DNA from: a virus
Virus record (IMG/VR): IMGVR_UViG_3300044630_000533
Coordinates: 1-32,387 of that record
Length of the DNA stretch: 32,387 nucleotides
Direction: 5' to 3' (one strand)
The translations under genes and the position numbers were made by a program. Under the pieces are notes generated by a model. It worked only from the letters and a program-made list of their open reading frames with translations. It searched no databases and was not told the origin of the DNA. Positions 7,901 through 32,387 of the stretch are shown here, in pieces (within the stretch, counting starts at the first letter, position 1; every line of letters begins with the position of its first letter).

Positions 7901-8131
7901 GAAACAAATGACGAAAAGGTTGATCCTAACAAACGTCAGATTGGTGTAATTGCTCAAGAAGTAAATGAGGTTTTACCCGAAGCAGTTACTTATGCAAAAG
8001 ATGTAGATGAGTATGGTGTTCAATATGGTAACATGGCTGGTCTATTTATTGAGGCTATTAAAGAGTTAACTTCTACAGTTGAAAAGTTAAACTCTAAAAT
8101 AGAAGAATTAGAAAAGAAAGTTAACTCATGA
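4949..8131 (+). CDS. Second tail fibre with C-terminal S74 chaperone domain
   Basis: A 1060-residue fibre, paralogous in part to the gene before it. The start at 4949 has a good ribosome site (aaagggg). The N-terminus carries DSGGTGATTAADALTNLGA, a motif common in phage fibres. Next come YTPYN/VTGAGSYDSATG modules (about 5790-6130) and four APIFYD-type repeats from about 6436. The C-terminal S74 domain begins near Ser955 (codon at 7811, in YSDARKKKEIV), followed by IGVIAQEVNEVLPEAV and a coiled coil. Self-cleavage there would release about 106 residues, by family knowledge. It lacks the long Ala/Ser/Thr stalk of fibre 1, so it is probably shorter or attached differently. The stop overlaps the next start (ATGA). 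Confidence 0.9.
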   Translation: MSIPRNLSKLADGADSSGVLKVDSGGTGATTAADALTNLGAIGNITSNDGSVVVSTTGTTKDLSVGIAGSTATLISQVRNETGATLTKGTVVYISGAAGNKALVSKAIATSDATSAQTYGMVQADIANNNNGYVVVIGVVSDLNTSAFAEGVQLYLSPTTAGTYTSTKPYAPLHLVYVGVVTRSHANQGTIEVKTQNGYEMDELHDVSAQSPSNGDTLVYVSSTDLWTKTPQSSLSVASAAAVPFSGVTGKPTTLSGYGITDAYSSSNPAGYISGITSGNVTTALGYTPYNATNPSSYINTSQARSAISVTGAGSYDSATGVINIVGGVTSFNTRTGAITLGSSDVTGALGFTPYNATNPSGYISGITSGMVTTALGYTPYNSSNPSGYITSAALSSYLPLSGGTLTGLLTINSTNDNQILLTSSDAWTGIGFDDAAASAADFIWHNGTNSTFAIGGGGSSISGKKLHIHGGTTIGSGLASTSVSTNGLLVETRIDAPIFYDSNNTGYYVDPAGTSRMSNINYDNLYFASDTTYGLIGRNGYLDTVNGRGSDPLELNYYDGGTVIIGAAASKNLLANGLYANIFYEKDNTAYYGDFASTSNLNAAMFAGPIGRSTSVAGWFQGTYNNVGDNSTKSNPIYTIGSSYNPSDAGTGNMYGVGYSHPNFFSSGRGSGWGLYTAAAGTITGVFGAESGFNTWINGYGVSTSSWRAPIFYDYDNTAFYLDPASSSIFNSLNLTSGGLSLSGVGVISRGATWTEFRDPSGATKFWLGNDASIYMNASNYFLRSNDSGATWVDINSSLLQHSSSLRAPIFYDRDDTGYYVNPNGVSYLYQLTLAGGGYFRPQNWIQMDGTYGIYWPGATGTPHWNPNSSTYGPMELSGIRNSYSGIRLPSSNNVTIGMFDSSGNGGLYNYSYWIYYWLVGNACLGVRTSSTSSSYAMYVDGGIYSTGNVVAYSDARKKKEIVTVDNALATVNKLRGVFYKRIETNDEKVDPNKRQIGVIAQEVNEVLPEAVTYAKDVDEYGVQYGNMAGLFIEAIKELTSTVEKLNSKIEELEKKVNS
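5787..6130 (+). repeat. Module shared with first fibre (copy 2)
   Basis: Same protein order as the block near 2394-2665: YTPYNATNPSSYI, VTGAGSYDSATGVINIVGG, TSFNTRTGAI, GFTPYNATNPSGYI. One extra YTPYN unit follows (about 6060-6120). Codons differ at many third positions from copy 1. Confidence 0.85.
6436..7440 (+). repeat. Four APIFYD-type repeats in fibre 2
   Basis: Units start near 6436, 6688, 7075 and 7373, with the pattern APIFYDxxNTGYYVDPxxTS. The second is the most diverged (ANIFYEKDNTAYYGDFASTS). The first and last keep the GYY core seen in fibre 1. Confidence 0.85.
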
Positions 8132-16075: not shown

Positions 16076-16495
16076 ATGAAAATAATTTTACTAACCCCCG
16101 AACAAACAGTTCAACACTGGCCTACAATTTCAGGTTACTTAACTAAAGTAATTGAGCATAGCCAAGGAGAATCATCACTTACAGACTATCTTAAGAAGAT
16201 CCTCAATGAATATGTTCAATGTTGGGCGGTAGTAGATGATGGTTTAAATATTATTGGTGTTGGTCTCACTCAATACTTACAATACTCTCAACACAAAACA
16301 CTTCACATCATTGCTTTTTCTGGTAGTGACTTTGAAGAACAATCTAAGGTGTTCCCTACAGTGGAACAATTTGCCCGTGATTCTGGCTGTAAAGCTATTG
16401 AACAATGGGGTCGTCCAGGATGGGCAAAGGTACTACCAAAGTATGTATCTGGATTTAAAGAAGCTTACGTAGTAATGCGAAAGGATTTAGAATGA
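16076..16495 (+). CDS. GNAT-fold protein, T7 gp13-like position
   Basis: 139 residues from ATG at 16076, six bases after the previous stop; an alternative GTG at 16052 would overlap the previous gene and lacks a better ribosome site. The pattern of an N-terminal beta strand (KIILLTPEQTVQHW), a central strand block CWAVVDDGLNIIGVGLTQY, and the end W-GRPGWAKVLPKYVSGFKE looks like the N-acetyltransferase fold found in many phage structural modules. No clear acetyl-CoA loop (RxxGxG) is seen, so catalysis is doubtful. T7 places a similar GNAT-shaped protein, gp13, ahead of its ejection proteins, as here. It may be an assembly factor. Confidence 0.6.
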   Translation: MKIILLTPEQTVQHWPTISGYLTKVIEHSQGESSLTDYLKKILNEYVQCWAVVDDGLNIIGVGLTQYLQYSQHKTLHIIAFSGSDFEEQSKVFPTVEQFARDSGCKAIEQWGRPGWAKVLPKYVSGFKEAYVVMRKDLE

Positions 16496-17373
16496 AATAT
16501 AAAATTAATGGTTCTATAAAAAAGAACTACGGTGGTGGTGGAGGTACTAGTACAGTAAGTAGTATTCCTGATTGGGCGCAACCCTACCTACAAAATGTTG
16601 GTAATGCTGCTGAAGCTGGTTATAGGTCAGGTGATCTAGGCAAAGTAGCTGGTGCATCAAGACTTCAATCAGACGCTTTTGGTGGTGGCGCTAATCTTAT
16701 TGGTGCAACAACTACAGGTGCTGCTGGTGCTTTGAGTGATCAATCAGGTCGCTTAGCTAACCTTGCTTCTACTGGTGTTGATACATCTGGCTCTGAAGCC
16801 TTGATTAGTAGTGCCACAGGCTCTATGGCTGACCAAGCTAAACGACTCACTGGTATGGCTATGGCTCCTAGTGCTGAGACTCTTGCGGCTCAAAAGTCAG
16901 GTATCTTACTTGACGCACAAAAGAAAGTCTCAGGATTGAATACTGGTTTTGGTCAAGCAGGTACATTAGGTTCTGCACGACAAGCTGTTATGCAAGGTGC
17001 TCAGAACGCTGAGACTACAGGTCAGCTTGCTAAGGTTGATGCTGAATATGAAAACAATATGTTTAGAAACCGACTTGCCGCTGAACAAGCTTTGGCAGGT
17101 ACTCAGACAGGTACTCTTAATGCCGCTACTAACTTGGCTAATCTTAGGTCAGGTGATGTTAGCACACGTCTTGCAGCTGAACAAGCTCTTCAGGGCGGTG
17201 CATCAGCAGGTGCTAACATTGTTAACACAGGTGTTGGTAATATTGCTAAACTTGGTGGTGAACAACGTGGTATTGATCAACAAGGTCTTGACGCAGGTTG
17301 GCAAGGTCTTCAGCGTTATGCTTCAACTATCTATGGTAACCCTGCAAGACAACAAGCGACTGGAGGTAAATAA
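16492..17373 (+). CDS. Ejection (internal virion) protein, gp14-like
   Basis: 293 residues; starts in an ATGA overlap. A basic N-terminus and a Gly run precede SSIPDWAQPYLQNVGNAAEA, a segment seen at the start of podovirus internal virion proteins. The remainder is Ala/Gly/Gln-rich, helical and without cysteine, with a repeated RLAAEQAL motif (about 197 and 224), suggesting a stacked helical hairpin. In T7, gp14 forms the outer-membrane part of the DNA ejection channel. This gene opens the run of five ejection-type genes ending at the RNA polymerase. Identity by pattern and position; no catalytic motif. Confidence 0.65.
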   Translation: MKYKINGSIKKNYGGGGGTSTVSSIPDWAQPYLQNVGNAAEAGYRSGDLGKVAGASRLQSDAFGGGANLIGATTTGAAGALSDQSGRLANLASTGVDTSGSEALISSATGSMADQAKRLTGMAMAPSAETLAAQKSGILLDAQKKVSGLNTGFGQAGTLGSARQAVMQGAQNAETTGQLAKVDAEYENNMFRNRLAAEQALAGTQTGTLNAATNLANLRSGDVSTRLAAEQALQGGASAGANIVNTGVGNIAKLGGEQRGIDQQGLDAGWQGLQRYASTIYGNPARQQATGGK

Positions 17374-18380: not shown

Positions 18381-20882
18381 ATGGCACCATTATCAGGTAA
18401 ACAACATAGAGAGTACCTCAAGTTCCAAAATAAAGAAGCTCGTGAAGCTTCTAAGATGGGACTTGACGAAATGCGTAAACAACAATTACATCAGATCAAA
18501 CTCCAAGAAGCAGCCGCAAAAGCTAATCAAGGTTTAGGTCATAGACAACAAGTTAATAATGCTAGGCTTAAAGATATGGGTATTCCCTTACCTAAAGGTG
18601 CAAGTATTAACAAACAAAAATTAGGTATTCCTTCAACAAATCCTCTGGCTGGTACAGAGATGTTTAAGCAAGGACAACACAAGTTACCTCAATCTCCTAT
18701 ATTTAAAGCACAAGGCACTGATACAGTTCCTGCTATGCTTACTCCCGGAGAAGCTGTTATCCCAGCACCTGCCGCACAGAATCCTAAGAACAAAAAAGCT
18801 ATTAAGCGTATGGTCCAAGAAGGTCGTAAGGCTAATAGGCTTCGTGACGGTGCTGTTAATATAGTTAATTCTGACGCACCAGCCCAAGCACGTTATCATG
18901 CAGACGGTACTAGTGATGTACCATCGTTAGCTTATCGTCATCCAGACGTACCCGGATCTTCATTTAATGACGGTACTGAGCGTGTGTTTAGCCGTGGTTC
19001 CGCTGATATGCAACATTATAATGATGGTACATATGGTGTAGTGCCACAGCAAGTACAGTCTGCTGTTGGCTACCAATATGGTACTGTTGATGCAGACATT
19101 GATGAAGAAAGAAAACGTCAGGGTGTAGTACCAATGGTTATTCAACCAGCTAGCACAGAGACAATCCCTATTTGGGATGAAAGAAGAGCCGAAGAAGGTG
19201 ATCGGTTTGCTAATATGGTTGCTGTTGATAACAGACCTATGCGGGATATTCCTATGGTTTCTGCAGTAACAACTCCTGTTATGGATCAAACACCATCTAA
19301 TGCAGTTATAACATCGAAAGAAGTCCCACCAGTAGTATTAGATACTTCGATTCCAATTAAATCAGTACCTGCTCCTAATGTTTCAGTTATTCCTGCAATT
19401 CCTGATAGGTTAAGAAAAGTTCCATTAGGATCACCTGATTCAGATGTAGTTTCTGTTACTAATAATCCCACAGTTGTTACTAGCCCTCTCGCAGTTGCTC
19501 CAGATCAATTAAATAAAGAAGAATTAGCTGGTCTTGATGTGGTTAACACACAGAATACACCTGCAACAGTTACTTCGGCTGTACCTACTACTACTACTAC
19601 TCCGACTGTACCTTCTAAGGTAGACCCTTACGCTGGTATAGAGCCTACTCTCAGAAAAGATTTTGAGACAGACCCTGTTAAAGCAGCTAGAAAGATTCGT
19701 AGTGTATCTGAAATTGTTGAAGAGTTAGCTGGAAAACAAAAGACAGAAAAGTCTTTTACAGACTCGTTAGCTAACTTGTTTACTGCCAGTGGCTTTAAAG
19801 AAGAACTTGGTTTAAATAATCAAGATATTATTCGTATGGCTATTTCTACTGCTGTTGGTGCTAAGAAGTTTGGTGTAAATCGTGCGCTTGCTTATGCAGG
19901 TAAACAGGCTTTTGAAGACTCTAACAAGCGAAATGCACAAGCACAAGCTGAAGCTAAAGCGATTCGTACAGCCGCTGTTCAAATTCGTGGTCAAGAAATT
20001 CGTGATGTTCGTAACGCAGAAGATGCTGCTGCTCGAGAACAACGTGATATAATTCGTGAAAATGCTCGTGCTGCACATGAAAGATTTAAAGCAGAGCAAG
20101 CAGTTCGTATGCAAGAGATCAAAGAGAGGTTTGAACGTGACAGGGATATTTTAAGGTATCAGCAGGATATGCAAAAAGAAGCAATGCGATTAACAGCCCA
20201 AGACAATCGTATGAATAAAATGTTTGGTTTCCAACAGGCTTTAATAGATTATAGAGAGGATAAGAAACAGAATTCTCCTAACGCTATAGTTGAACGTCTT
20301 TCCGCAAATATTCAGAAAGCATCTAGTGCTGTTGGAGAAATTTTAGATCGATCGTTTGGTGCTGATAACATCCAAGGTAAGGCTAACCCAAATAGGGAAG
20401 GTTTCCCAACTAAAACACAAGCAACTCAGCAAGTTGTATCTGCCCTTGCTAATGCGGGTTATGATATGTCTAACCCTGATGTGTATATGCAAGCCACATC
20501 AGTTATTAACTCGGGAATTGAAAAAGCAATTGCAGATAAAAAGTCTGGTAGAGTAGATATTCCTAACGTTACTCCTTATATAATGAGTAGCATAATGCAA
20601 CAACGTTTAAAGATTCCATCTGAATTACTTAATGTTGGTAAAGATAATAAACCAATGCCAGCTGAAAAGTTAACGTCTTTGTTTAAAGAAGTTAGATCTT
20701 TAGCTTTAGACCCAGAGACAGGTAAAGTTAACACAACAAAAGAAGCTGAAATTGCAAATGGTATTTTTGCTGAATGGAATGGTCCTAACGGTAAAAAGCA
20801 TCGTGCACAATTTAAAGGTACAGAGAACGAATCAGCCTTTGCACAATTTATGCAAGCAAGTTTAACTAAACTTAAACAGTAA
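18381..20882 (+). CDS. Long helical ejection protein with VPAMLTPGEAVIP motif
   Basis: 833 residues, ribosome site aaggaa. Near residue 110 lies GTDTVPAMLTPGEAVIPAPA, with KKAIKRMVQEGRKANRLRDG after it; this motif recurs in phage internal virion and tape-measure proteins. Several degenerate (H/Y)xDGTxxVP units follow (about 170-225). A Pro/Val/Thr-rich linker covers 260-420, then a long charged helix without breaks at about 510-630 (RNAEDAAAREQRDIIRENAR), and a helical C-terminus. By position (between the gp14-like and SNase/RNA polymerase genes) it matches T7 gp15 in the ejection stack; a tape measure is less likely for a short-tailed phage. No enzymatic residues recognised. Confidence 0.6.
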   Translation: MAPLSGKQHREYLKFQNKEAREASKMGLDEMRKQQLHQIKLQEAAAKANQGLGHRQQVNNARLKDMGIPLPKGASINKQKLGIPSTNPLAGTEMFKQGQHKLPQSPIFKAQGTDTVPAMLTPGEAVIPAPAAQNPKNKKAIKRMVQEGRKANRLRDGAVNIVNSDAPAQARYHADGTSDVPSLAYRHPDVPGSSFNDGTERVFSRGSADMQHYNDGTYGVVPQQVQSAVGYQYGTVDADIDEERKRQGVVPMVIQPASTETIPIWDERRAEEGDRFANMVAVDNRPMRDIPMVSAVTTPVMDQTPSNAVITSKEVPPVVLDTSIPIKSVPAPNVSVIPAIPDRLRKVPLGSPDSDVVSVTNNPTVVTSPLAVAPDQLNKEELAGLDVVNTQNTPATVTSAVPTTTTTPTVPSKVDPYAGIEPTLRKDFETDPVKAARKIRSVSEIVEELAGKQKTEKSFTDSLANLFTASGFKEELGLNNQDIIRMAISTAVGAKKFGVNRALAYAGKQAFEDSNKRNAQAQAEAKAIRTAAVQIRGQEIRDVRNAEDAAAREQRDIIRENARAAHERFKAEQAVRMQEIKERFERDRDILRYQQDMQKEAMRLTAQDNRMNKMFGFQQALIDYREDKKQNSPNAIVERLSANIQKASSAVGEILDRSFGADNIQGKANPNREGFPTKTQATQQVVSALANAGYDMSNPDVYMQATSVINSGIEKAIADKKSGRVDIPNVTPYIMSSIMQQRLKIPSELLNVGKDNKPMPAEKLTSLFKEVRSLALDPETGKVNTTKEAEIANGIFAEWNGPNGKKHRAQFKGTENESAFAQFMQASLTKLKQ

Positions 20883-20896
20883 ATAAAGGAAAATAA

Positions 20897-23800
20897 ATGG
20901 ATGGATATTTAGACAACCTAAGAAAGATAATATCAAGGAAATCAGATTTACCAGGAGGTATCTCATTAACGGATGCTGATACCGTGGTAACCCCTTCGGG
21001 GGAATCCATCCGTCTTCAAGGCATTAGTGCAAGAGAGACTGCTAAACTTCCTGATGATTTAAGTAAAAGTAAAGGCGCTCAAGCGGGTGCCTATACCCAA
21101 AGTAGATTGATGGAAGACGTTATTCGTGAGGGTAACTTTACTACACCAGTACTTACACAAGATAAATCTTATAAACGTACTCTTGGTGATTTAGTAGACC
21201 CTAGTGGAAGACGTCTTACTAACAAAGCATTAGAAATGGGTATTGTTGATCCAACAGCCGATACAACTAGAGATCAATACAACTCTATGTACATGGGTAA
21301 TCTTGACCGTGCTCAACGTAGAGTAGATAAGCAACCTACAATAGCTGACAGTTTACTTTTTGAGCTTAACAAAGAGCGTAACCCTAATGGGTTTATGATG
21401 TCTAAGCTTCAAACAGATACTGCTGGTATGTATGGTCAAGCAAAAGAACAAGGTCTTGACGAGTATTTTTCTGGTCCATCTATTATCAGAAAAGGTGAAG
21501 ATCGGTATGGTAAAGCTATTTCTAATTTAAGCAGTGGTTGGGATCAAGGTAAACTTCAAGCCGCTAAAAGCGTGTATGGTATGTTTGATCTTATTGCGGA
21601 TAAAACAGGTAGCGAATCATTTAAAAACTTTGCACAATCAGGTATTAATGAAAATACCTCTTTGTTAAGAGACATACCTGAATTAAGAAGTGCAGAGGCA
21701 TTTAATGATAAAGGTGAGTGGAAATTAGATACACTAGGTAAGTTCTTTGATTGGACTGTAGGTAGTGCAGCTGCTTCTGCTCCTCAAATGTTGACTAGTA
21801 TTGTTGCTGTTATGGCTTCACCAGCAACCTATGGTGCTTCTTTATCAATTCCATTTAGTATGTACACAGGTCAGGTATACAACGATCAGAAGAATAAGAA
21901 TGCAACTGCCGCTGTTGCTGCTGGTTTTACTATGACAGTGCTTGATAAGTTATCATTGCCATTTATTCTTGGTAAAGGTAAAGACATTACTAAACAGGCT
22001 ACTCAAGATTTAGTATTGAGAGAGCTACAAAAGACAATGACTAAAGAAGCGGCTGAAGAGTTGCTACGTAAGTCTATGACTGAGTCTGTTAAGGAAGTTA
22101 GTACTGCTTTCAAAACAATTTCTGGTGGTACGCTTAATAAGATAAAAGGTATTGGAGGAGCTACTGCTTCTGGTGCTTTGGTTGAGAGTGGTGTAGAAAC
22201 ACTACAAGAATTAGCTGGTTATTTTGGTGAGCAAGGTAGTTTTGATTTACCTTCTTCACCAGAAGAAATGACAAAGCTAAAATCTAGATTGGCAAATGCG
22301 GCTGTTGGTGGTGCTGTATTAGGTGGTGGATTGTCTGGTGGTCTTAAGACTTATTCAGTATTAACTGCACCAAGCGATGTTGTTCCTAGATCATCAACTG
22401 ATGTTGAGTTTAGAGAAAAATATATTAATGATATTAATGAACAACGTGTAGCTTCAGGAGATACTCCTATTGTTACAATGCCTTCTACTACAGACGTTAT
22501 TGATAAGACATTAGAATTACAAGAGAAAAATCCTATTGAAACATCGTTAAATGCTTTAGCTTCTGCTGAGACTGCTAAAAGACAGACTGAAGGTGTTTAT
22601 GCTAAAACAATGTCTGCTATAAAAGATAAAGGTATTAGTGGTTTATTTGGTAAATTTTCTAACATTATAACTAGTGATACTAAACATAAGAGCATTTACT
22701 CAGCTACATTATCTACATTGTTAGGTAGTTCTACTGCTGTTAATGGGGCTTCTATTGAAAACCACCAAGCTATTTTAGAGTCAAACATCTTTAAAAACTT
22801 TGGTAACATTGAAAATTTTATTTCTGCTTTTGGTGGTGTATCTGCTACAGAAGCTTCTCGTATTATATCTAACCCTACTGTTGTTAATGCAATATCAGAG
22901 TTAGCTCGTATTAAAAGAGATTTATTTGCTACTTCTACCAGAGATATCGCTGATAAGATGGATATTGATTACGGTAACTTTGGTAATTTTAAAGATTCTA
23001 TTATTGATTATGCTGATAGAATAAGTAATTTAACTAAAGCATACAATCAAGCTACAGGTAAAGATTTGTCTGTTAGACAATTCTTAGAGTTTAAACCATT
23101 AGATAAAACAATTGTGTCAAAGAACTCTGGTCAGTTTGTCAGAGACTTACAACAACACTTAGGTATGAACTATGCAGATGCAACTGAATTAACTAATGCA
23201 ATACTAGATAACAAACAAGTTAATAGTTTTGAGGATTCACTTGATGAATTGCTTAATGGTAATGCAGAAAAGATTAAAGATAAGCAAGGGTTAGAAGCTA
23301 AACTAGCTCAACCCGGAGTCAAAAGTTTCTTTAATCAGTATATGTCTCATAACATTATAGATAACGCTTATTCATTAGCCGCATCGGGTGCTGCTTTTAA
23401 TACTAATAAAGAGTTAATTGGTAAAGATGGTTCTAAGCTTGCCGCATTAGTTCAGCAAATGAAAGACAATGGTGACATTGATGATGTACAAGCTAGTTTT
23501 ATAGCTAAAGAAATTCAAGATGTGTTAGCAATGCGTAATGGTGAATTCAAAGCCATTACTAATCCTTATTTAAAAGGTGCATTGAACACTCTTAATTTCT
23601 TATCTACTATTACTGCACTACCATTAGCCGCTGTTAGTTCTACAGTAGAGTTTGCTCAGATATATCGTAACCTAAATAGACCACAAGCCGCTAAAGCTAC
23701 ATTGGCTTTACTTAAAAGTACAGGCAGTGAAATAGGTGCTTTGTACAGAGAGATTGGTAACAAGCTTACTGATAGAGTTCTTATTAAAAATGCTAAGATT

Positions 23801-24700
23801 AGAACAGACTTGTCTGAAGCAGGATACCTAAGAGAAGGTGGTGTTGGTCATCGTAATGACATTCTAACGTCATATTATTCTAAATGGACTGACGGGTTCT
23901 TTAAGTTAACTGGTTTAACTTCTGTAACAGCTATTACCCGTAATGCTCGATTAGCTATTGCAGCTGATGCTATACAAAATTGGTTGAATGTTGTTTCTGA
24001 AGGTACAGGTACTGAACAAGAAATAGCAGATGCTAAAGACCATTTAAGACGTATTAACGTTGACTATGAATACATGATGGCTATTAATGCTGATACTAAA
24101 TCTACAGAAAAATATGTTATAAACAATTTACAACAGGCTACATATAACTTTGTTAATGAAGCAGTTATTATACCTACTATTCTTAATAGACCTAAGTTTT
24201 ATAGTGATCCTTATCTAAAACTGTTTACTCAATTTACGGGTTATACATCAGCATTCACAGCAAATATTCTCCCAAGATTAGTAACTGATATCCGTAAGTC
24301 AGGATCAGATGATCAAAAGAATACTGCAGCTGTTATTGCTATGATGCTTGCTTTGGCTATGCTTTCTTTGTATATTAAAGATATGATTAAGTATGGTGAA
24401 CATCCACCTGAGTGGGTCAAAGAAAATAAAGAGTTTTTAAGAGTTATTAATGCAATGGGTATCTTAGGTTCAGGACAACGGATCTTTGATCAGATATTCC
24501 CATTGATAGAAGACAACAGAAAGAAATCTATCACAGATAAGATTGCCGAACAATCCGCACAGCTCTCATACATCAAGAAGGTTGAAAGAGCTTTAGAGGC
24601 ACCAGAAGGTAAACGGATTGAACAGGGTGCGAAGCTGCTTCCCATAGTTGGAACAAGTCCCGCTTTCGCTAAATACTTACAGAAAGAGCTAGGAGAATAA
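20897..24700 (+). CDS. Large ejection protein with N-terminal SNase-like nuclease domain
   Basis: 1267 residues, ribosome site aaagga. Residues 22-118 fit the staphylococcal nuclease fold: TDADTV (Asp26, Asp28), then SIRLQGISARE with Arg39 and Glu47, then DKSYKRTLGDLVDPSGRRL with Arg94, and NKALEMGIV. Spacing Arg39-Glu47 (8) and Glu47-Arg94 (47) is close to SNase Arg35-Glu43-Arg87 (8 and 44), but the calcium ligand Asp40 is replaced by Ser44, so activity may be altered. Hydrophobic, membrane-capable segments follow near 286-322, 338-358, 467-485 and 1140-1164. T7 gp16, in the same gene position, has a lytic transglycosylase at its N-terminus; here a nuclease-like domain takes its place. Stop and next start are adjacent. 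Confidence 0.72.
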   Translation: MDGYLDNLRKIISRKSDLPGGISLTDADTVVTPSGESIRLQGISARETAKLPDDLSKSKGAQAGAYTQSRLMEDVIREGNFTTPVLTQDKSYKRTLGDLVDPSGRRLTNKALEMGIVDPTADTTRDQYNSMYMGNLDRAQRRVDKQPTIADSLLFELNKERNPNGFMMSKLQTDTAGMYGQAKEQGLDEYFSGPSIIRKGEDRYGKAISNLSSGWDQGKLQAAKSVYGMFDLIADKTGSESFKNFAQSGINENTSLLRDIPELRSAEAFNDKGEWKLDTLGKFFDWTVGSAAASAPQMLTSIVAVMASPATYGASLSIPFSMYTGQVYNDQKNKNATAAVAAGFTMTVLDKLSLPFILGKGKDITKQATQDLVLRELQKTMTKEAAEELLRKSMTESVKEVSTAFKTISGGTLNKIKGIGGATASGALVESGVETLQELAGYFGEQGSFDLPSSPEEMTKLKSRLANAAVGGAVLGGGLSGGLKTYSVLTAPSDVVPRSSTDVEFREKYINDINEQRVASGDTPIVTMPSTTDVIDKTLELQEKNPIETSLNALASAETAKRQTEGVYAKTMSAIKDKGISGLFGKFSNIITSDTKHKSIYSATLSTLLGSSTAVNGASIENHQAILESNIFKNFGNIENFISAFGGVSATEASRIISNPTVVNAISELARIKRDLFATSTRDIADKMDIDYGNFGNFKDSIIDYADRISNLTKAYNQATGKDLSVRQFLEFKPLDKTIVSKNSGQFVRDLQQHLGMNYADATELTNAILDNKQVNSFEDSLDELLNGNAEKIKDKQGLEAKLAQPGVKSFFNQYMSHNIIDNAYSLAASGAAFNTNKELIGKDGSKLAALVQQMKDNGDIDDVQASFIAKEIQDVLAMRNGEFKAITNPYLKGALNTLNFLSTITALPLAAVSSTVEFAQIYRNLNRPQAAKATLALLKSTGSEIGALYREIGNKLTDRVLIKNAKIRTDLSEAGYLREGGVGHRNDILTSYYSKWTDGFFKLTGLTSVTAITRNARLAIAADAIQNWLNVVSEGTGTEQEIADAKDHLRRINVDYEYMMAINADTKSTEKYVINNLQQATYNFVNEAVIIPTILNRPKFYSDPYLKLFTQFTGYTSAFTANILPRLVTDIRKSGSDDQKNTAAVIAMMLALAMLSLYIKDMIKYGEHPPEWVKENKEFLRVINAMGILGSGQRIFDQIFPLIEDNRKKSITDKIAEQSAQLSYIKKVERALEAPEGKRIEQGAKLLPIVGTSPAFAKYLQKELGE

Positions 24701-27700
24701 ATGGCAGTTAATATTAACACAAGCAAAAACGTACCTACAATACCACGTATTGCAGATGATTTGCTTCAACAACAGATCAACGAAGCTAATGCTCGTATGG
24801 CGGCTCAACCCCCTCGGCAAGAAGCAATACCTAACCCTTCAGCAATCTTTGGTGAAGAGGAAGAGTTTGTTCTTCCATATAAAAAGTCTCCATATGTTAT
24901 TCCAAGAAGACTTTCTGGTCTACCTCCTGATGCAAAGTTACTTGCAGGTACAGATGTTCGTATGCCTTCAGAACAAGAGGCTATACCTACGGACCAAGAG
25001 ATTATACCTACAGAGCAATTATCTGAGGATGTCCAACCTGAAATGATAGAAGAAACACCACAAGAAGATGGTGGGTTTGGTATGGATAGCTTTGCTATTG
25101 AAAGTACTGATCAAGACTATTACAGTAAACTTCAAGAAGAACGTAACAGGCAAATGGAAGTAAGGAAAATCCTTGATCCTTCTCGTTTTGAAAATGAAAA
25201 TGATATCAGAACTGCTTACGGTGAAGGGGCAGTTAAAGCTACAGAAGCAGGTGCTATTATTCGTACTGCTATGAATATTACTAATGGTCTTAATGATCTT
25301 GATGTAGGCTTATATAAAGAGGGTACAACATCTAATGCACAGCTTAACGGTCTTACTTATCTTAAACAGGGTACTGGATTAGATACTAAACAGATTGGTA
25401 ATGCCGCTACTACTTCTTTTATTTTGTATGCTCCTATGTTATCAGGTGCAGCATCTCAAAAAGACGGTGAGATCATGTCTGCTGAGGACAATGCTGATAT
25501 TGATAGCTTAGACCAACTGATAATGGATGACGGTGATGGTGCCTTAGATAAGGTAGCCGTTAATGGTGGTCTTAAACGTGACATGGTCCAAAAGGGTTTA
25601 GGTCGTTTGTTTAAAAAGCTTTCAAAAAGTGTCGGTGATACTTATTGGGGTAATACAGAACGTATTAATCAAAACATTTCTAATGAGGCTGCTGGTGCAA
25701 CCATTGTTCAAGCTTTAGTTGATAAGGGTTATTTGGTTGAAGATGTTAACCCAGATGGTGTTGAGATTCTTAGACTAAGTCCAGGCTTAGGTGCTGACTT
25801 AAGATACAAGAGTAAAGGTATGCAACGTAGTGTTACTGGTGCATTGTCAGGTAAAGCTCAAAAGGCTCCTCCTACTGAAACAGGTGCTTATCAAGGTGCA
25901 TTACAAGATGTCCGTGAAATGGATAAAAAGAAACAAGAGTACACTGTTACACAACAAATGGCTGAAGCCAAAGGTGCTGTAGCTAAAGTACCACTCTTTA
26001 TTTCACCCGTTAAAGCTTACTTTGCAGCTCTGTTTAATGAAGCTATTCTTGGTCATGTTAAAAACCCAATGAACCCAGCACAATTAGATGTTATGGGATT
26101 GTTAAAGGTATCCGAAGAAGATATTCAAGATGCTTCTGCTAATGGAAACAAAACATCTGCAGAAATTATTGATCAAAAAGTAAGCAATCTTCAAACTGAA
26201 TTAGGTGACATGGCAGCACACGTAGCCTATGGTGGTCCACAGTTCTCTACTTATTGGGAAGACTATGCTACCCATCGTATGTATCAAGATGCAACTGACT
26301 TTAACCCACAACGTAATAAGTGGACTCGTGCATTAACTGTAGGTAAGTCTTCTCCTATTATGCTTAATAGTAACTTCCATAATACAGGTGTTAACAAAGC
26401 AACTGCTGAAGGATTCTTTAGCAGGATTGCAGGTAAAGCTCGAAATGGTAATTTTACTTTGTCAGCAGATGAAAAAGAATTAAGTTTCCTTACAACACTT
26501 GGTCGTGTACTTGATTCAAGTAGGTCTGTTGGTATGTCATCTGAATCTATATTGTTGCCTGACCTGTTACAAACAGTAACACCAATGTTTATTGCTGAAG
26601 CAGCTGCAAAAGGTAGATTGTTACGTAGTATTGTACCTAATAACACTCGTGAAGTTGTTAATGCTCTTGGTAAACCAGAAGGTCTTATTGATAAGCTTAC
26701 TCCTGCTCAGAAAGGTGCTTTAGATAACTTCCTTAAAGAAGCAGATAGAGACGACTGGGGTTATAAGCTTCAGGCGTATCTTGATGCAGCTAACTATTTA
26801 GATGCAAAAATGAATGGTACACCTTTCACACCACGAGTTACTGTAGCTCTTGATATGAACTCTGCTGGTCGTTCGTTCTTAGCCGCTGACGTTGGTAACA
26901 TGGATATCTTAAGTCGTGTTGGATTAGTATGGGATAAGTTTGTTGATAGAGTAGACGATTTCTTTACTGATACATTACCTAATGAAAAGGGTGATCCACG
27001 ATACTACTTTACAACTGTAGCTTTAGATACAGGTATCTCTGCTGCTTTTGGTGATGCTAAACAAGAGAAGATTGATAAATTTAAAATGTTGCTTGCTAAA
27101 TATGGTGGTGCAGGAGTTGCTGGTAATAAGCAGTTCAACAAAGACTTTTCAAAGAAAGTCTTGATGACCACTGACTATGGTAAGCCAGCTAACTTTCACA
27201 TTGCAGAAGCTAAAGCCTTTTTAAAGAGTCACCCTGAATTTAGAGATGAAGCAGTAAAGTTTTATAATGGTGATGTAGATGCTTTAGCCAAAGACATCAA
27301 TGAGATTTATAAAGCAACTTTAAAACAAACAACAGACGCTTGGCAGTATGTGTTGCCTAAGAAGATGGTTAAGTTCTTACAGATGTTTGGTCGAGTACCT
27401 AAACCAATTGGTTACTACAATGAAAACATTTCTATTGGTAGATTTGGTACTGAGCCTACAGGTAATATTGTTCAAATCAAAGGTGCAGAAGGTAAACGCA
27501 GACGTATTATGGAGACTATGAGGATGTTTGATCCTTTAGCTCCTGCTAAGGCTAAAGGTTTAAGGCTAGACGATGGTTCATTGTTCATACCTGAAGAAGG
27601 TTCTGGAGCAGTTAACCAAGTTGGTCCTACATTCGGTCAATATCGTGAGTCAATTATTGTTGCTGAGACAGCAAGGTTACTTAATGGTAATAAAACACCA

Positions 27701-28252
27701 GCGAATTCTAACTTTATTATTCCTGTATTTGATAACTTTATTGTTGACTCTATGAGCTACCCATTTGTTCATTACGTAGCTAATAATATTGTAGCCCCTA
27801 ATGTGTTTAGTTGGAATATGGCTAAGGGTTTTTCTCTTGATTTCCGTAAACAACTTAGAGAAGCTTTACCTGAGATGATGAGTTCTAATGAGATTATTGT
27901 TGGTCCAGGATCACCTTACAAAGGTATCTTTACTACTATTGATCGTGAATATAAGTGGTTAAAAGATAAACAGCCTAATGAATTAGCAGAATATCAAAAG
28001 ACTTTAAAGCAATTTCTTGAAAGTAAATCTTCTGGTTATATACCTCCAGGTCCTAATAGACCCGAGTCTACACGTTTAACATCTCAACAAGCAAGAGCTT
28101 TAGTAAAAGCTATTAGTGATTTTTATAACTTTAATGATAAGCTCCAAGGCGTTGATGCTTGGGATAATTTAAAATATAAAGGTATGCGTGATTCATTCTT
28201 AAAAGAACTTGTATCACGAGGTAAAAAAGGATTAATTTACTTCTTTACTTGA
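24701..28252 (+). CDS. Single-subunit RNA polymerase of the T7/N4 family, probably packaged in the virion
   Basis: 1183 residues, starting right after the previous stop with aggag upstream. Residues 1-145 are a Pro/Glu-rich linker. The polymerase core carries, in order: DYATHRMY with Asp521 and Arg526 (T7 DWRGR region) running into FNPQRN (534-539; FNPQGN in T7); motif A VALDMNSAGRSF with Asp718; motif B KKVLMTTDYG, Lys818 to Tyr826-Gly827, with Lys814 at T7 Arg627; motif C PVFDNFIVDS with Asp1011. Spacing Asp718-Lys818 (100) and Tyr826-Asp1011 (185) compare with 94 and 173 in T7. The gene is last in the late operon, not early as in T7, so delivery with the DNA, as for N4 gp50 (about 3500 residues), is inferred. 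It probably transcribes early genes. Confidence 0.85.
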   Translation: MAVNINTSKNVPTIPRIADDLLQQQINEANARMAAQPPRQEAIPNPSAIFGEEEEFVLPYKKSPYVIPRRLSGLPPDAKLLAGTDVRMPSEQEAIPTDQEIIPTEQLSEDVQPEMIEETPQEDGGFGMDSFAIESTDQDYYSKLQEERNRQMEVRKILDPSRFENENDIRTAYGEGAVKATEAGAIIRTAMNITNGLNDLDVGLYKEGTTSNAQLNGLTYLKQGTGLDTKQIGNAATTSFILYAPMLSGAASQKDGEIMSAEDNADIDSLDQLIMDDGDGALDKVAVNGGLKRDMVQKGLGRLFKKLSKSVGDTYWGNTERINQNISNEAAGATIVQALVDKGYLVEDVNPDGVEILRLSPGLGADLRYKSKGMQRSVTGALSGKAQKAPPTETGAYQGALQDVREMDKKKQEYTVTQQMAEAKGAVAKVPLFISPVKAYFAALFNEAILGHVKNPMNPAQLDVMGLLKVSEEDIQDASANGNKTSAEIIDQKVSNLQTELGDMAAHVAYGGPQFSTYWEDYATHRMYQDATDFNPQRNKWTRALTVGKSSPIMLNSNFHNTGVNKATAEGFFSRIAGKARNGNFTLSADEKELSFLTTLGRVLDSSRSVGMSSESILLPDLLQTVTPMFIAEAAAKGRLLRSIVPNNTREVVNALGKPEGLIDKLTPAQKGALDNFLKEADRDDWGYKLQAYLDAANYLDAKMNGTPFTPRVTVALDMNSAGRSFLAADVGNMDILSRVGLVWDKFVDRVDDFFTDTLPNEKGDPRYYFTTVALDTGISAAFGDAKQEKIDKFKMLLAKYGGAGVAGNKQFNKDFSKKVLMTTDYGKPANFHIAEAKAFLKSHPEFRDEAVKFYNGDVDALAKDINEIYKATLKQTTDAWQYVLPKKMVKFLQMFGRVPKPIGYYNENISIGRFGTEPTGNIVQIKGAEGKRRRIMETMRMFDPLAPAKAKGLRLDDGSLFIPEEGSGAVNQVGPTFGQYRESIIVAETARLLNGNKTPANSNFIIPVFDNFIVDSMSYPFVHYVANNIVAPNVFSWNMAKGFSLDFRKQLREALPEMMSSNEIIVGPGSPYKGIFTTIDREYKWLKDKQPNELAEYQKTLKQFLESKSSGYIPPGPNRPESTRLTSQQARALVKAISDFYNFNDKLQGVDAWDNLKYKGMRDSFLKELVSRGKKGLIYFFT

Positions 28253-28308: not shown

Positions 28309-28588
28309 ATTTCAATAGTTGATTATACATGTCTAATGCTTGCTTACGATTATTACTAGCAAGCTCTTGAGCTTCTGTCTTGGTGTAAGGCATACCCGTT
28401 TTATCGTTAAGAACATCAGTTAAACCTGTTGAACTTTGTTTATATACTTCATTAATTACATAAGGACCAAGGTCTTTAGTATAAAGAACATTGTCAGGAA
28501 TATTAATACCTACATCCCGCATATCAATTTGGAAGTCATGGTCATCATAATCATGACCTCTTAAGGCTTGTACGTTATAACTTTTCAT
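28307..28588 (-). CDS. Small protein of unknown function, last gene of leftward operon
   Basis: 93 residues; starts in an ATGA overlap with the Dps-like gene, so its translation is probably coupled to it. Acidic and His/Asp-rich near the start (RGHDYDDHDFQIDMRDVGI), then mixed alpha/beta, with a helical C-terminus (TEAQELASNNRKQALDMYNQ). No signal peptide or membrane helix. The clustered His and Asp could bind metal, which would suit a partner of the ferritin-like protein, but this is speculation. No family recognised. Confidence 0.7.
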   Translation of the reverse strand: MKSYNVQALRGHDYDDHDFQIDMRDVGINIPDNVLYTKDLGPYVINEVYKQSSTGLTDVLNDKTGMPYTKTEAQELASNNRKQALDMYNQLLK

Positions 28589-29061
28589 TTAAAACTCTTT
28601 CCAAGTGTTGCTTTGACTTTCCAGTTAAGCTTGGACAAGTCTTTAATATAGTCACCAACAAGTGTAGCTAAGCCACCATAGCATTGTATATCAGCTTCAT
28701 CATACAGTTTTTGAGCATGATCAACTAAATCATCAAAGTCTTGATTTAGCCATGTAAACATTTCTTTACTTGGCTTTCTAGCATTATCACACTCTGCAAT
28801 ATCAGTCATACTAAGAACTTCTTTAAGAGAGCATGGTACTCCCTTGTCCATCTGACGGATCTGTTCACCAAGCATATCATGTTGTGCCCACAAGAAGTCA
28901 TAGATCTCTTCTAAAAGAGCATGATCTTGAGCAAACATAGGGCCTTCCACATTGAAGTGATACCCATGAGACTTGTAGTATGTCACAAAGTTATCAGCAT
29001 AAAGCTGTGTAAGCATTGTAATCAAATTATTACTTTTGGGTTGAGGTGGTGTCATTGCCAT
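28585..29061 (-). CDS. Dps-like ferritin
   Basis: 158 residues, ribosome site aaagga. The ferroxidase signature of Dps proteins is complete: His35 (in YHFNVEG), His47, Glu51, Asp62 and Glu66. Their spacing (12, 4, 11, 4) equals that of E. coli Dps His51, His63, Asp67, Asp78 and Glu82, with Glu in place of Asp67. Dps proteins oxidise and store iron as a 12-subunit cage and can shield DNA from peroxide. The short N-terminus (MAMTPPQPKSNN) has no lysine-rich DNA-binding tail, so iron chemistry is more likely than DNA coating. Its 5' end overlaps the previous gene by 32 bases. The gene shows that the phage may protect the host during infection. Confidence 0.85.
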   Translation of the reverse strand: MAMTPPQPKSNNLITMLTQLYADNFVTYYKSHGYHFNVEGPMFAQDHALLEEIYDFLWAQHDMLGEQIRQMDKGVPCSLKEVLSMTDIAECDNARKPSKEMFTWLNQDFDDLVDHAQKLYDEADIQCYGGLATLVGDYIKDLSKLNWKVKATLGKSFK

Positions 29062-29881: not shown

Positions 29882-29956
29882 TGGTTGCGGGGAAGGGAGT
29901 CGCACCCCTGACCTATGGATTATGAGTCCATCGCTCTTCTACTGAGCTACCCCGCT
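29882..29956 (-). tRNA. tRNA with CAU anticodon (Met elongator or Ile2), CCA encoded
   Basis: 75 bases on the minus strand. Acceptor stem with six GC pairs and an A1/A72 mismatch; D stem GCTC/GAGC with a 7-base loop lacking the usual GG; anticodon stem ATGGA/TCCAT with loop CTCATAA (anticodon CAU); T stem AGGGG/CCCTT with loop TGCGACT; then A73 and an encoded CCA. The anticodon stem lacks the three GC pairs of an initiator. CAU is shared by elongator tRNA-Met and lysidine-modified tRNA-Ile2; the sequence does not decide between them. It precedes the tRNA-like gene in the same transcript, after thioredoxin. Confidence 0.85.
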
Positions 29957-30218: not shown

Positions 30219-30496
30219 TAGTTACCTTTAAACAGTTCTTCTTTAAGCAGATATCCTTCAAGAGACCAGAGCTGGTCAATAGCATTTTCAAACGAATACT
30301 TTTCTCCAAGGGCTTGGTTGTACCTTGACTTATCCACACAGGCACTTGTGCCAATGACTACGTAACCGTTCTTCATGAACACTTGGCAGATAGTTGTTGT
30401 GGTTTCTGGTAGCAGAGTATACACTGACTTCTCAATCTTAGACATGATATGGTCAATAGTTACTGATGTACGTGGTTTTTCTTTGGTATCGTTCAT
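30218..30496 (-). CDS. Gp49-type phage protein of unknown function
   Basis: 92 residues. Matches a small family named after phage Gp49/Gp66: SVTIDHIMSKIEKSVYTLLP, then TTTICQVFMKNGYVVIGTSA and CVDKSRYNQALGEKYSFENA, ending with IDQLWSLEGYLLKEEL. The family is widespread in phages and prophages and has no known activity; the conserved NGYxVxGxSACVD block suggests a small alpha/beta domain. It is coupled to the endonuclease VII-like gene before it (ATGA) and to thioredoxin after it. Confidence 0.8.
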   Translation of the reverse strand: MNDTKEKPRTSVTIDHIMSKIEKSVYTLLPETTTTICQVFMKNGYVVIGTSACVDKSRYNQALGEKYSFENAIDQLWSLEGYLLKEELFKGN

Positions 30497-30867
30497 TGTT
30501 TACTTTCTAAATATTTAACTGCCTTGTTTAAACCTTCAAGAGTATCCCCAAAAATACCAAGACCTTTGTTACATTGACCACAGAGAATACCTCTTATTTT
30601 ACCTGTAATATGATCATGGTCTACTACAGCACTTTGTTTAGTTGCTTTGCCATCTAATTCTACTGGTGTATTACAAATAGCACAGCAACCATCTTGATCT
30701 TCAATAAGCCTATCTCTTTCTGGAGAAGTAATATTGTATTTAGATCTTAGGTGTCTGCAGGTATTACATTCTTTGTAGCGAGCACTATATTCTTTTCCTG
30801 TTCTATTAGGGTTATTAATAGAATAAGCTGTAGTTTCGTTATGACATCCTATATTTTTGCATTTCAT
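30493..30867 (-). CDS. Endonuclease VII-like HNH nuclease
   Basis: 124 residues. Zinc-binding cysteines Cys62-Cys65 and Cys96-Cys99 frame the catalytic block VVDHDHITGKIRGILCGQCN (His84, Asp85, His86) and NKGLGIFGD. This is the pattern of T4 endonuclease VII-like and free-standing HNH nucleases. Such enzymes resolve branched DNA during packaging or act as homing endonucleases. A second pair of cysteine clusters (Cys3, Cys8, Cys34, Cys37) may bind another zinc. The start abuts the nrdJ stop, with a ribosome site (ggagg) inside the end of nrdJ. Its place beside a ribonucleotide reductase gene, a common homing site, favours a mobile origin. Confidence 0.85.
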   Translation of the reverse strand: MKCKNIGCHNETTAYSINNPNRTGKEYSARYKECNTCRHLRSKYNITSPERDRLIEDQDGCCAICNTPVELDGKATKQSAVVDHDHITGKIRGILCGQCNKGLGIFGDTLEGLNKAVKYLESKQ

Positions 30868-32387
30868 TTAAATCTCGCATCCTCCTGCGGTGCAACTTAA
30901 AGTCTGCACACCTTCCACATTGTCACGGTCTTCATAAAACAAATCCCAGTTAATAACAGGTAATGTATCTTTGAGGCGATGATAAACTGACAAATCAATA
31001 TTTTCATATGGAGCTTGTCGATATGTTCCACCGTCATCAGGGAGGAAAGAAATACCTGTGCATTCATTGAAGTGTTCATATACCCATGCTCCTACTTCCA
31101 TCCACTCGTGGTCTTTAACTGAGATAGTTACTGAGGGCTTATGCTCACACCAGTAACGCTGATATGTCAACCAGATATTGAGGTGTTCAATAGCTGTAAG
31201 ATCTTCACGAGTAAATCCTGGTGAGTGTTGTGGAAAGCTAAACACAGTAGTCTGATCAGGCTTCATAACGCAGTCTTCGTTAGGGATACCTTGAGAGATC
31301 AAGAACTGAGTCAATGGATCTTTCTTATCCTGACGAATACGTCTGATATAATACTTAGCATGTCCAGCATGGATACCGCTGGATGTCTGTGTAAGTTGTG
31401 ACACAGTACCTTCAGGCTTAACACAGGTAATAGCGGCTGACTCAGGTACACCTAAGATAGCTGCCCACTCTTTGTTAGTTTCACGGGCTACATCACGAAG
31501 CTCTTCAAGAAGGTCTCTTAGTGGATAGTGAGTACTACCACGGAGATAAGGGTTGTCAAGGATACCAGTCATAGACACACCCAAGAGACGTTCTTGGTTG
31601 GTGTTAGTACGCCATACATCACGAAGATAAGGGAAATCAGTCAGTGTAGACTGCATAGTACCCATGATAGTAGCCAAGCGAACTTTAGTTTTGAGTGACT
31701 CAACAGTATCTTCAGGAGACACTACTATGGTAGACAAATTACAAAACTGATATGGCTTTAGGATAATCTCTGAGCAAGGGTTAGTACCATAGTCAACCTT
31801 AGGATCTCTGCGACCCCACTTAGCGGCTTGTACTTGAGAAGCTTCACGGTTGAAAATACCACGTTCACCTGAGTGGCTGTTATAAATGTCTAACCATTCT
31901 TTCATGAACTCACCGATAGAAGGTTTGCTGTTGTATACTGCTGAGTTGTTAGCTAATGCACGTTCACCATGGTTTTCCCACCATGCACCTGCTTTAGCCG
32001 TGGCATGATCATAGTCACCCAAGTCACCAAGAGAAATCATGGCTGACCTACGTACACCACCTACCACAACTACTTCACCGATTTTACACATAATATCATG
32101 GGCTTCAATAGACTTAAGCTTACGACCTTGAGCAGCTTTAAACTTATCTACTGTATACTGGAACAAGTCAATCAGTGGACCCGGACCTGAGGCACGACCA
32201 CCGAATGTTTTAAGTGGCGCACCTGCTGGACGAACGAGCGACACATCCCATTTAGGAATAATACCCTCATACAACATTCCAATAAGCATTTTATAAGCTT
32301 CACACCAACCTTCTTTAGAGTCAGCTACTACAATAGTGTAGCCAGTAGCCTCAACCATTGTAGGAACAACGGGTAACTGGTTAACAT
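30868..32387 (-). CDS. nrdJ: Ribonucleotide reductase, class II (B12-dependent, monomeric type), N-terminus beyond window
   Basis: The last 505 residues are present; the frame is open through the window edge, so the ATG at 32358 is internal. Reduces ribonucleotide triphosphates or diphosphates to deoxy forms using adenosylcobalamin. NPCSEI near 31774 holds the thiyl-radical cysteine and the catalytic Glu two residues on; FCNLS supplies the paired redox cysteine exactly 11 residues after it, as Cys408, Glu410 and Cys419 in the Lactobacillus enzyme. The C-terminus SCTAGGCEI has the swinging Cys-x4-Cys pair. VVGGVRRSAMISLGD and VTCVKPEGTVSQL-like segments also fit. Phages carry it to make dNTPs without oxygen or a second subunit. 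Thioredoxin three genes on is a likely electron donor. Confidence 0.93.
   Translation of the reverse strand, partial: VNQLPVVPTMVEATGYTIVVADSKEGWCEAYKMLIGMLYEGIIPKWDVSLVRPAGAPLKTFGGRASGPGPLIDLFQYTVDKFKAAQGRKLKSIEAHDIMCKIGEVVVVGGVRRSAMISLGDLGDYDHATAKAGAWWENHGERALANNSAVYNSKPSIGEFMKEWLDIYNSHSGERGIFNREASQVQAAKWGRRDPKVDYGTNPCSEIILKPYQFCNLSTIVVSPEDTVESLKTKVRLATIMGTMQSTLTDFPYLRDVWRTNTNQERLLGVSMTGILDNPYLRGSTHYPLRDLLEELRDVARETNKEWAAILGVPESAAITCVKPEGTVSQLTQTSSGIHAGHAKYYIRRIRQDKKDPLTQFLISQGIPNEDCVMKPDQTTVFSFPQHSPGFTREDLTAIEHLNIWLTYQRYWCEHKPSVTISVKDHEWMEVGAWVYEHFNECTGISFLPDDGGTYRQAPYENIDLSVYHRLKDTLPVINWDLFYEDRDNVEGVQTLSCTAGGCEI

What the first reader, a model, noticed from the sequence alone, without database searches (positions are those of the whole stretch)
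20963..21251. SNase-like nuclease domain at the N-terminus of the large ejection protein
Residues 22-118 follow the staphylococcal nuclease pattern with Arg39, Glu47 and Arg94 at family spacing and Asp28 in the DxDT turn, but the metal ligand Asp40 is Ser. T7 gp16 carries a lytic transglycosylase at this point; a nuclease-like domain would be a different cargo. It could cut host nucleic acid on entry, bind the leading phage DNA end, or be a dead fold used for DNA binding.
Basis: partly seen in the sequence, partly recalled or inferred. Interest (0 to 1): 0.75.

Follow-up and report, generated by a model that had tools for sequence, protein, structure and literature searches.

The report
Nuclease-fold module on phage ejection protein
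A marine virus of bacteria carries, at the front of a giant protein that is probably shot into the host with its DNA, a module of the staphylococcal-nuclease family, and relatives carry it next to a wall-cutting lysozyme, which hints that these viruses inject a nuclease.

Summary
Residues ~22-118 of the 1267-aa ORF 20897-24700 are an SNase-family OB-fold. The predicted model matches SNases (all 50 Foldseek rows). The family profile matches phage SNases (hhalign 97%). A 38%-identical homologue (L193) passes Pfam SNase.

Three further groups of large phage proteins, sharing this protein's body or its C-terminal part, carry the same module: Roseobacter phage CRP-7 gp34, L174-type contigs and Aeromonas phage phiA008 gene66. 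D28, R39, E47 and R94 are invariant in 13 of 13 sequences.

The Asp40 position is Ser in the window, Asn in some of its nearest kin, and Asp in CRP-7, L174 and phiA008. Asn there also occurs in 11 of 33 Bacillota SNase loci (one read by eye), so Asp40 loss alone does not show a dead enzyme.

The nuclease does not simply replace the wall hydrolase: L174 carries lysozyme and SNase in tandem; CRP-7 carries a lysozyme-like domain on the protein just upstream.

Best reading: a virion-packaged module co-delivered with the ejection machinery, probably a Ca2+-dependent nuclease, perhaps weakened in the window clade. Delivery and activity are inferred; a DNA-binding dead fold is the main rival.

The parts
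20897..24700 (+). Large probable ejection (internal virion) protein, 1267 aa, carrying the module
   Evidence: ORF; C-terminal match to phrog_6958 virion structural protein E 4.5e-19 and to particle/structural proteins of KPP25- and LUZ24-type podophages
20960..21250 (+). SNase-family OB-fold module, residues 22-118
20978..20980 (+). Asp28 codon (SNase Asp21 position, in DADT)
   Evidence: invariant in 13 of 13
21011..21013 (+). Arg39 codon (SNase Arg35 position)
   Evidence: invariant in 13 of 13
21026..21028 (+). Ser44 codon (SNase Asp40 metal-ligand position; S, N or D in the family)
21035..21037 (+). Glu47 codon (SNase Glu43 position)
   Evidence: invariant in 13 of 13
21176..21178 (+). 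Arg94 codon (SNase Arg87 position), in YKR; other groups have YGR
   Evidence: invariant in 13 of 13
23333..24496 (+). C-terminal region, about residues 813-1200, shared with podophage virion structural proteins
16492..17373 (+). Upstream probable DNA ejection protein, orthologue of CRP-7 gp37
   Evidence: phrog_4287 E 4.7e-4; blastp to CRP-7 gp37 E 5e-16
18381..20882 (+). Upstream large protein, 833 aa, same position as CRP-7 gp35; no lysozyme-like domain found
24701..28252 (+). Downstream large protein, 1183 aa, same position as CRP-7 gp33 (weak similarity E 0.004)

Best explanation
The first ~120 residues are an SNase-family nuclease module fused to a giant ejection protein of a CRP-7-like marine podovirus. 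The protein is packaged with the genome and expelled at infection. Its C-terminal body, shared with PaP3/LUZ24/KPP25-type virion proteins, would help form or follow the conduit across the envelope, while the N-terminal cargo is delivered with it. In relatives a lysozyme module opens the wall and the SNase module is delivered in the same act. The module is probably a Ca2+-dependent, largely sequence-independent nuclease, quiet inside the capsid and active once exposed to Ca2+ in the periplasm or at cell entry. There it could cut host or rival nucleic acid, or clear nucleic acid from the entry path. In the window clade the second acidic metal ligand is Ser or Asn, which would weaken metal binding but need not abolish cleavage. 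Shown here: fold, family, conserved active-site residues, domain order, gene order. Inferred: packaging, ejection, catalysis, target.
For: SNase fold and family. D28, R39, E47, R94 (plus D26, T29, G64, G104) are the only 8 invariant of 84 ungapped columns in 13 sequences from five groups; chance that all four catalytic positions fall among them is 3.6e-5, not corrected for kinship. Same fusion: CRP-7 gp34, L193, L174/L170/L177 (the L177 piece starts downstream of most of the lysozyme), phiA008 gene66 with Pfam SNase 29.9 bits at residues 28-112. Lysozyme and SNase in tandem: L174 residues 34-130 and about 196-286. N at the Asp40 position in 11 of 33 Bacillota SNase loci (10 by regex plus L145 by eye) and in phage A403 nuclease. 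Virion identity of the C-terminus.
Against: No experiment shows the protein in a virion, ejection, or nuclease activity. In the window clade the Asp40 position is S/N and YGR is YKR or FKR; Ser at Asp40 was seen in 0 of 33 and in none of the 75 regex-matched of 80 YokF-like loci. A free nuclease packaged with DNA would endanger the phage genome. Four related podophage proteins with a similar C-terminus (KIT05, JB8, Lyrsu01, Vibrio 1.262.O) show no SNase domain by profile search, and the phiR18 N-terminus, read by eye, shows none, so the module is dispensable in the wider family. Models are of modest confidence (mean pLDDT 61.8 and 57.0).
Confidence: 0.5

Rival explanations
1. A catalytically dead SNase fold used to bind nucleic acid, for example holding the leading DNA end to the ejection proteins.
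For: Ser/Asn at the Asp40 position and YKR instead of YGR in the window clade; the listed Tudor-SN/extended Tudor structures of the same fold belong to proteins known (recalled) as binding rather than cutting domains.
Against: Asp28, Arg39, Glu47 and Arg94 stay invariant while most of the domain changes (8 of 84 columns invariant). A pure binding domain would have little reason to keep Glu43 and both arginines. CRP-7, L174 and phiA008 keep the full set.
Confidence: 0.27
2. A nuclease that acts on the phage's own DNA during packaging or at the end of ejection, for example trimming or releasing the DNA end.
For: The module sits on a probable internal virion protein that would touch the packaged DNA (inference).
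Against: SNases are largely unspecific (recalled), so own-DNA use needs tight control; relatives of the C-terminal family do without the module.
Confidence: 0.1
3. A Tudor-like or structural OB module that binds protein or cell wall, with the SNase residues kept for folding.
For: Extended Tudor domains are among the VIA rows (ranks 1, 9, 31 of 50).
Against: The invariant residues are those of the catalytic site, not only of the core.
Confidence: 0.08
4. Chance resemblance; not an SNase domain.
For: No Pfam, NCBIfam or PDB sequence hit for the window sequence itself.
Against: L193, 38% identical over 469 aa including the domain, passes Pfam SNase; profile and fold comparisons agree.
Confidence: 0.02

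Closest known systems
Roseobacter phage CRP-7 gp34 (MK613349.1, annotated hypothetical protein)
   Same: SNase module at the N-terminus, same body and gene order; 35% identity over the aligned N-terminal region, 23-24% over the full alignment
   Different: Asp present at the Asp40 position and YGR motif; a Pesticin/lysozyme-like domain on the upstream protein gp35
L174-type viral contigs (IMG/VR 3300006919_000317)
   Same: 24% identity over 1324 columns; same order of three large ORFs
   Different: An N-terminal phage lysozyme domain precedes the SNase; Asp at the Asp40 position
Aeromonas phage phiA008 gene66 (OL774570.1, annotated hypothetical protein)
   Same: Pfam SNase at residues 28-112 of a 2050-aa protein whose C-terminus is homologous (E 3e-9)
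   Different: Canonical site; longer middle region; no match to the CRP-7 RNA polymerase in its genome
Staphylococcal nuclease / thermonuclease family PF00565 (B. subtilis phage YokF, cyanophage endonucleases)
   Same: OB-fold and Asp21/Arg35/Glu43/Arg87 positions
   Different: Those compared here are mostly small stand-alone or secreted proteins; the window lacks the Asp40 residue and falls below the Pfam model
Phage T7 gp16 (recalled)
   Same: Very large internal protein with an N-terminal enzyme domain
   Different: T7 carries a lytic transglycosylase; no SLT match here; no T7 gp16 sequence was compared
PaP3 orf19 / LUZ24-type and KPP25 virion structural proteins
   Same: C-terminal region homologous
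   Different: KIT05, JB8, Lyrsu01 and Vibrio 1.262.O, of the wider family, show no SNase module by profile search

Membership tests
SNase family (PF00565) | SNase OB-fold | tested here: met
   all 50 Foldseek rows shown are SNase; second model from the CRP-7-like clade best E 1.3e-4, all 50 rows shown SNase
SNase family (PF00565) | Score over the Pfam cut-off | tested here: not met
   No hit for the window; close homologue L193 36.7 bits and phiA008 29.9 bits exceed the cut-off of 21
SNase family (PF00565) | Asp21, Arg35, Glu43, Arg87 positions | tested here: met
   D28, R39, E47, R94 invariant in 13 of 13
SNase family (PF00565) | Asp40 metal ligand | tested here: not met
   Ser44 in the window; S/N in its clade. 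N also in 11 of 33 Bacillota SNase loci (one read by eye)
SNase family (PF00565) | Ca2+-dependent nuclease activity | not testable with these tools
   Needs an assay
Podophage ejection (internal virion) proteins | Homology to virion proteins and position after tail genes | tested here: met
Podophage ejection (internal virion) proteins | Presence in the virion and transfer into the host | not testable with these tools
   Needs proteomics
T7 gp16-type protein with lytic transglycosylase | N-terminal SLT domain | tested here: not met
   SLT matches 0 of 7 records, window included

The most novel reading that the evidence does not exclude
A group of podoviruses, several of them marine, packages an active unspecific Ca2+-dependent nuclease inside the capsid beside its own genome and injects it, together with a lysozyme, as modular cargo on the ejection protein. 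The window clade has retuned its metal site (Asp to Asn/Ser) so that the enzyme works only in Ca2+-rich surroundings such as the marine periplasm, sparing the packaged genome.
Probability: 0.3. Interest if true: 0.82.

Novelty: new variant of a known kind. Interest (0 to 1): 0.62.

Why it matters
Known enzymatic cargo of podophage ejection proteins is wall hydrolases and, in N4, an RNA polymerase (recalled). A packaged nuclease would add a third kind of cargo and raises a clear, testable question: how a nuclease is kept harmless beside the packaged genome. CRP-7 is a cultured phage with a canonical site, so the question can be tested. The L174-type proteins, with lysozyme then SNase then body, show that the cargo is modular.

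Tried and rejected
Direct sequence searches of the window N-terminus found nothing firm: Pfam, PDB by phmmer and by profile A3 (only unrelated weak hits), GenBank phages by tblastn (the CRP-7 N-terminus found only itself). PF00565 by the genome search gave 0 of 6 records. Genome contigs gave no relative of the protein. A phiA008 query found no IMG/VR relative; L193 found only itself. SLT was absent in 7 of 7 records; Pesticin was found in CRP-7 and G155 over the cut-off and weakly in G156, not in the window or its nearest relatives. Separate phage lysozymes exist in G001, G002 and G157.

Considered and rejected: that Asp40 to Ser alone shows a dead enzyme; that the nuclease replaces the wall hydrolase.

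Literature: I looked for prior description and saw none in the listings; this covers only the open-access library. For PMC6918029 (CRP-7) and PMC12629253 I saw passages from term searches only; 'nuclease' gave no word-start match in either, which would miss 'endonuclease'. Effects of Asp40 mutation in SNase are recalled, and one search gave nothing I read.

The Bacillota sample (33 loci, L118-L150: 4 and 29 new ones) is biased to high-scoring hits. Its count of 11 Asn is 10 by regular expression plus one (L145) read by eye from the printed miss. In the YokF-like set, 75 of 80 matched the regular expression (74 D, 1 G) and 5 did not. Rows left out of the final 13-sequence table: L001 (identical to the window over this protein), L013 and L014 (same matched part as L012), L177 (same stretch as L174).

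Full report
What is there. The window is a 32,387-base IMG/VR virus fragment. ORF 20897-24700 + encodes 1267 aa, starting with ATG after AAAGGA.

Is it an SNase domain? The sequence alone is below the Pfam model, matches PHROG 452 'endonuclease' only weakly (E 0.017), and matches no PDB sequence. Three lines say it is one. First, profile comparison: the window clade (5 sequences) against 7 phage and virus SNases (YokF, A403, ApPV1, three cyanophages, yong2) scores 29.0 where 100 column-shuffled controls reach at most 18.6; joined with the CRP-7 clade it scores 44.9, controls at most 17.3; the full 13-sequence family reaches 97.1% probability, and 96.5% without phiA008. Second, structure: the AlphaFold model (8 sequences; mean pLDDT 61.8, core blocks about 75-84) has the SNase topology. 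All 50 Foldseek rows shown, of 247 with E <= 10, are SNases (best E 0.010, TM about 0.4, none at E <= 0.001). All 50 VIA rows are SNase or Tudor-SN/extended Tudor at Z 7.5-8.7, with 4 of 868 chains at Z >= 8. A second model from the CRP-7-like clade (mean pLDDT 57.0) gives E 1.3e-4 and again only SNases in the 50 rows shown. Third, an intermediate: contig L193 encodes a protein 38% identical to the window over 469 aa (E 3e-81), and its N-terminus passes Pfam SNase at 36.7 bits (cut-off 21); over the domain alone the identity is 37% over 114 aa.

The family. Close relatives are L001 (100%), L002 and L003 (79%), L005 (84%) and L006 (75%), best-segment identities. The Roseobacter phage CRP-7 gp34 and its IMG/VR kin L010-L014 align at about 23-24% over the full length. 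L174/L170/L177 form another group, L174 being 1517 aa and 24% identical over 1324 columns (E 2.5e-63). Aeromonas phage phiA008 gene66 (2050 aa) shares the C-terminus (E 3e-9) and has a Pfam SNase at residues 28-112. Among viral model structures the best match is A0A646QXC0 (1368 aa, the length of CRP-7 gp34), and another large protein, A0A6J5NQ80 (1342 aa), is already labelled SNase-like. Other relatives of the C-terminus (KIT05, JB8, Lyrsu01, Vibrio 1.262.O) gave no SNase domain, and the phiR18 N-terminus, read by eye, shows none. The module is therefore an add-on restricted to some lineages.

Is the protein an ejection protein? By inference. Its C-terminal region matches phrog_6958 'virion structural protein' (E 4.5e-19) and structural or particle proteins of KPP25, KIT05 and PaP3-type podophages (the PaP3-type match was seen with the L174 protein as query). 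The gene at 16492-17373 matches a 'DNA ejection protein' PHROG (E 4.7e-4) and CRP-7 gp37 (E 5e-16). The three-large-ORF order followed by convergent genes is the same in CRP-7 and L174. Relatives G001 and G002 also carry a T7-like RNA polymerase related to that of CRP-7 (35%). The neighbours at 18381 and 24701 show little or no sequence similarity to CRP-7 gp35 and gp33.

The active site. In 13 sequences from five groups (5 window clade, L193, 4 CRP-7 clade, L170, L174, phiA008), 8 of 84 ungapped columns are invariant: D26, D28, T29, R39, E47, G64, R94, G104. All four catalytic positions are among them (chance 3.6e-5, not corrected for kinship). Within the window clade alone the conservation is not informative (52 of 95 columns invariant, p 0.085). 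The Asp40 position reads S,S,N,N,N in the window clade (window, L002, L003, L005, L006), N in L193, and D in the seven others. To weigh this, I read SNase loci from Bacillota genomes: 22 D and 11 N of 33 (10 N by regular expression, one by eye). In 80 YokF-like loci, 74 were D, 1 G, 5 unmatched. Asn is thus a common natural variant, while Ser was not seen in these two samples. The window clade also has YKR (FKR in L005) where the other groups have YGR. A weakened rather than dead site is my reading; neither was tested.

Cargo context. L174 carries a phage lysozyme domain (residues 34-130, 24.6 bits for the isolated domain, cut-off 22.3) directly before the SNase domain (SNase Pfam 16.1 and 19.3 bits in L174 and L170, below the cut-off). 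That lysozyme region is 39-47% identical to stretches of Vibrio phage proteins in the rows shown, among them the virion RNA polymerase of pVa5, where the match begins 9 bases after the start of the gene. CRP-7 has a Pesticin (lysozyme-like) domain at the start of gp35, the protein just upstream. The window and its nearest relatives have no SLT or Pesticin match; G001, G002 and G157 have a separate small lysozyme. So the nuclease module is extra cargo beside, not instead of, the wall hydrolase in at least two groups.

How it most likely works. The protein is packaged, expelled and traverses or lines the envelope; the N-terminal modules act on the way. With Ca2+ plentiful in a marine periplasm (recalled general knowledge) and scarce in the capsid interior (inference), an SNase module could be switched on by delivery. 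Target and timing are unknown. The main alternative is a dead fold that grips DNA.

Novelty. Fusions of this kind are present in databases, in the annotated records I saw as hypothetical proteins; I saw no description in the listings, which cover open-access papers only. I class it as a new variant of a known kind: ejection-protein cargo, with a nuclease-family module.

Noticed in passing
L174:2119-2610: N-terminal lysozyme module of the L174 protein is 39-47% identical to stretches of Vibrio phage proteins, including the N-terminus of the virion RNA polymerase of phage pVa5: the same lysozyme cargo rides on otherwise different ejected proteins.
   Followed up: partly
L007:2736-6407: CRP-7 gp35 starts with a Pesticin (lysozyme-like) domain.
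   Followed up: partly
window 28585-29061 (-): Ferritin/Dps-like protein (Pfam Ferritin E 4.3e-10, phrog_3636 DNA binding protein).
   Followed up: no
window 30868-32358 and 30493-30867 (-): Matches to ribonucleotide reductase domains (Ribonuc_red_lgC and the B12-dependent insertion domain) at the window edge, next to a recombination endonuclease VII.
   Followed up: no
window 108-4895 and 4949-8131: Two very large tail fibre proteins, each ending in a Peptidase_S74 chaperone domain.
   Followed up: no
window 29882-29956 (-): tRNA-Met gene.
   Followed up: no
L154-L196: Motif scan found many small SNase-like ORFs (about 110-280 aa) in viral contigs besides the four large proteins.
   Followed up: no
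L118-L150: Asn replaces Asp at the Asp40 position in 11 of 33 Bacillota SNase loci (one of them read by eye).
   Followed up: partly
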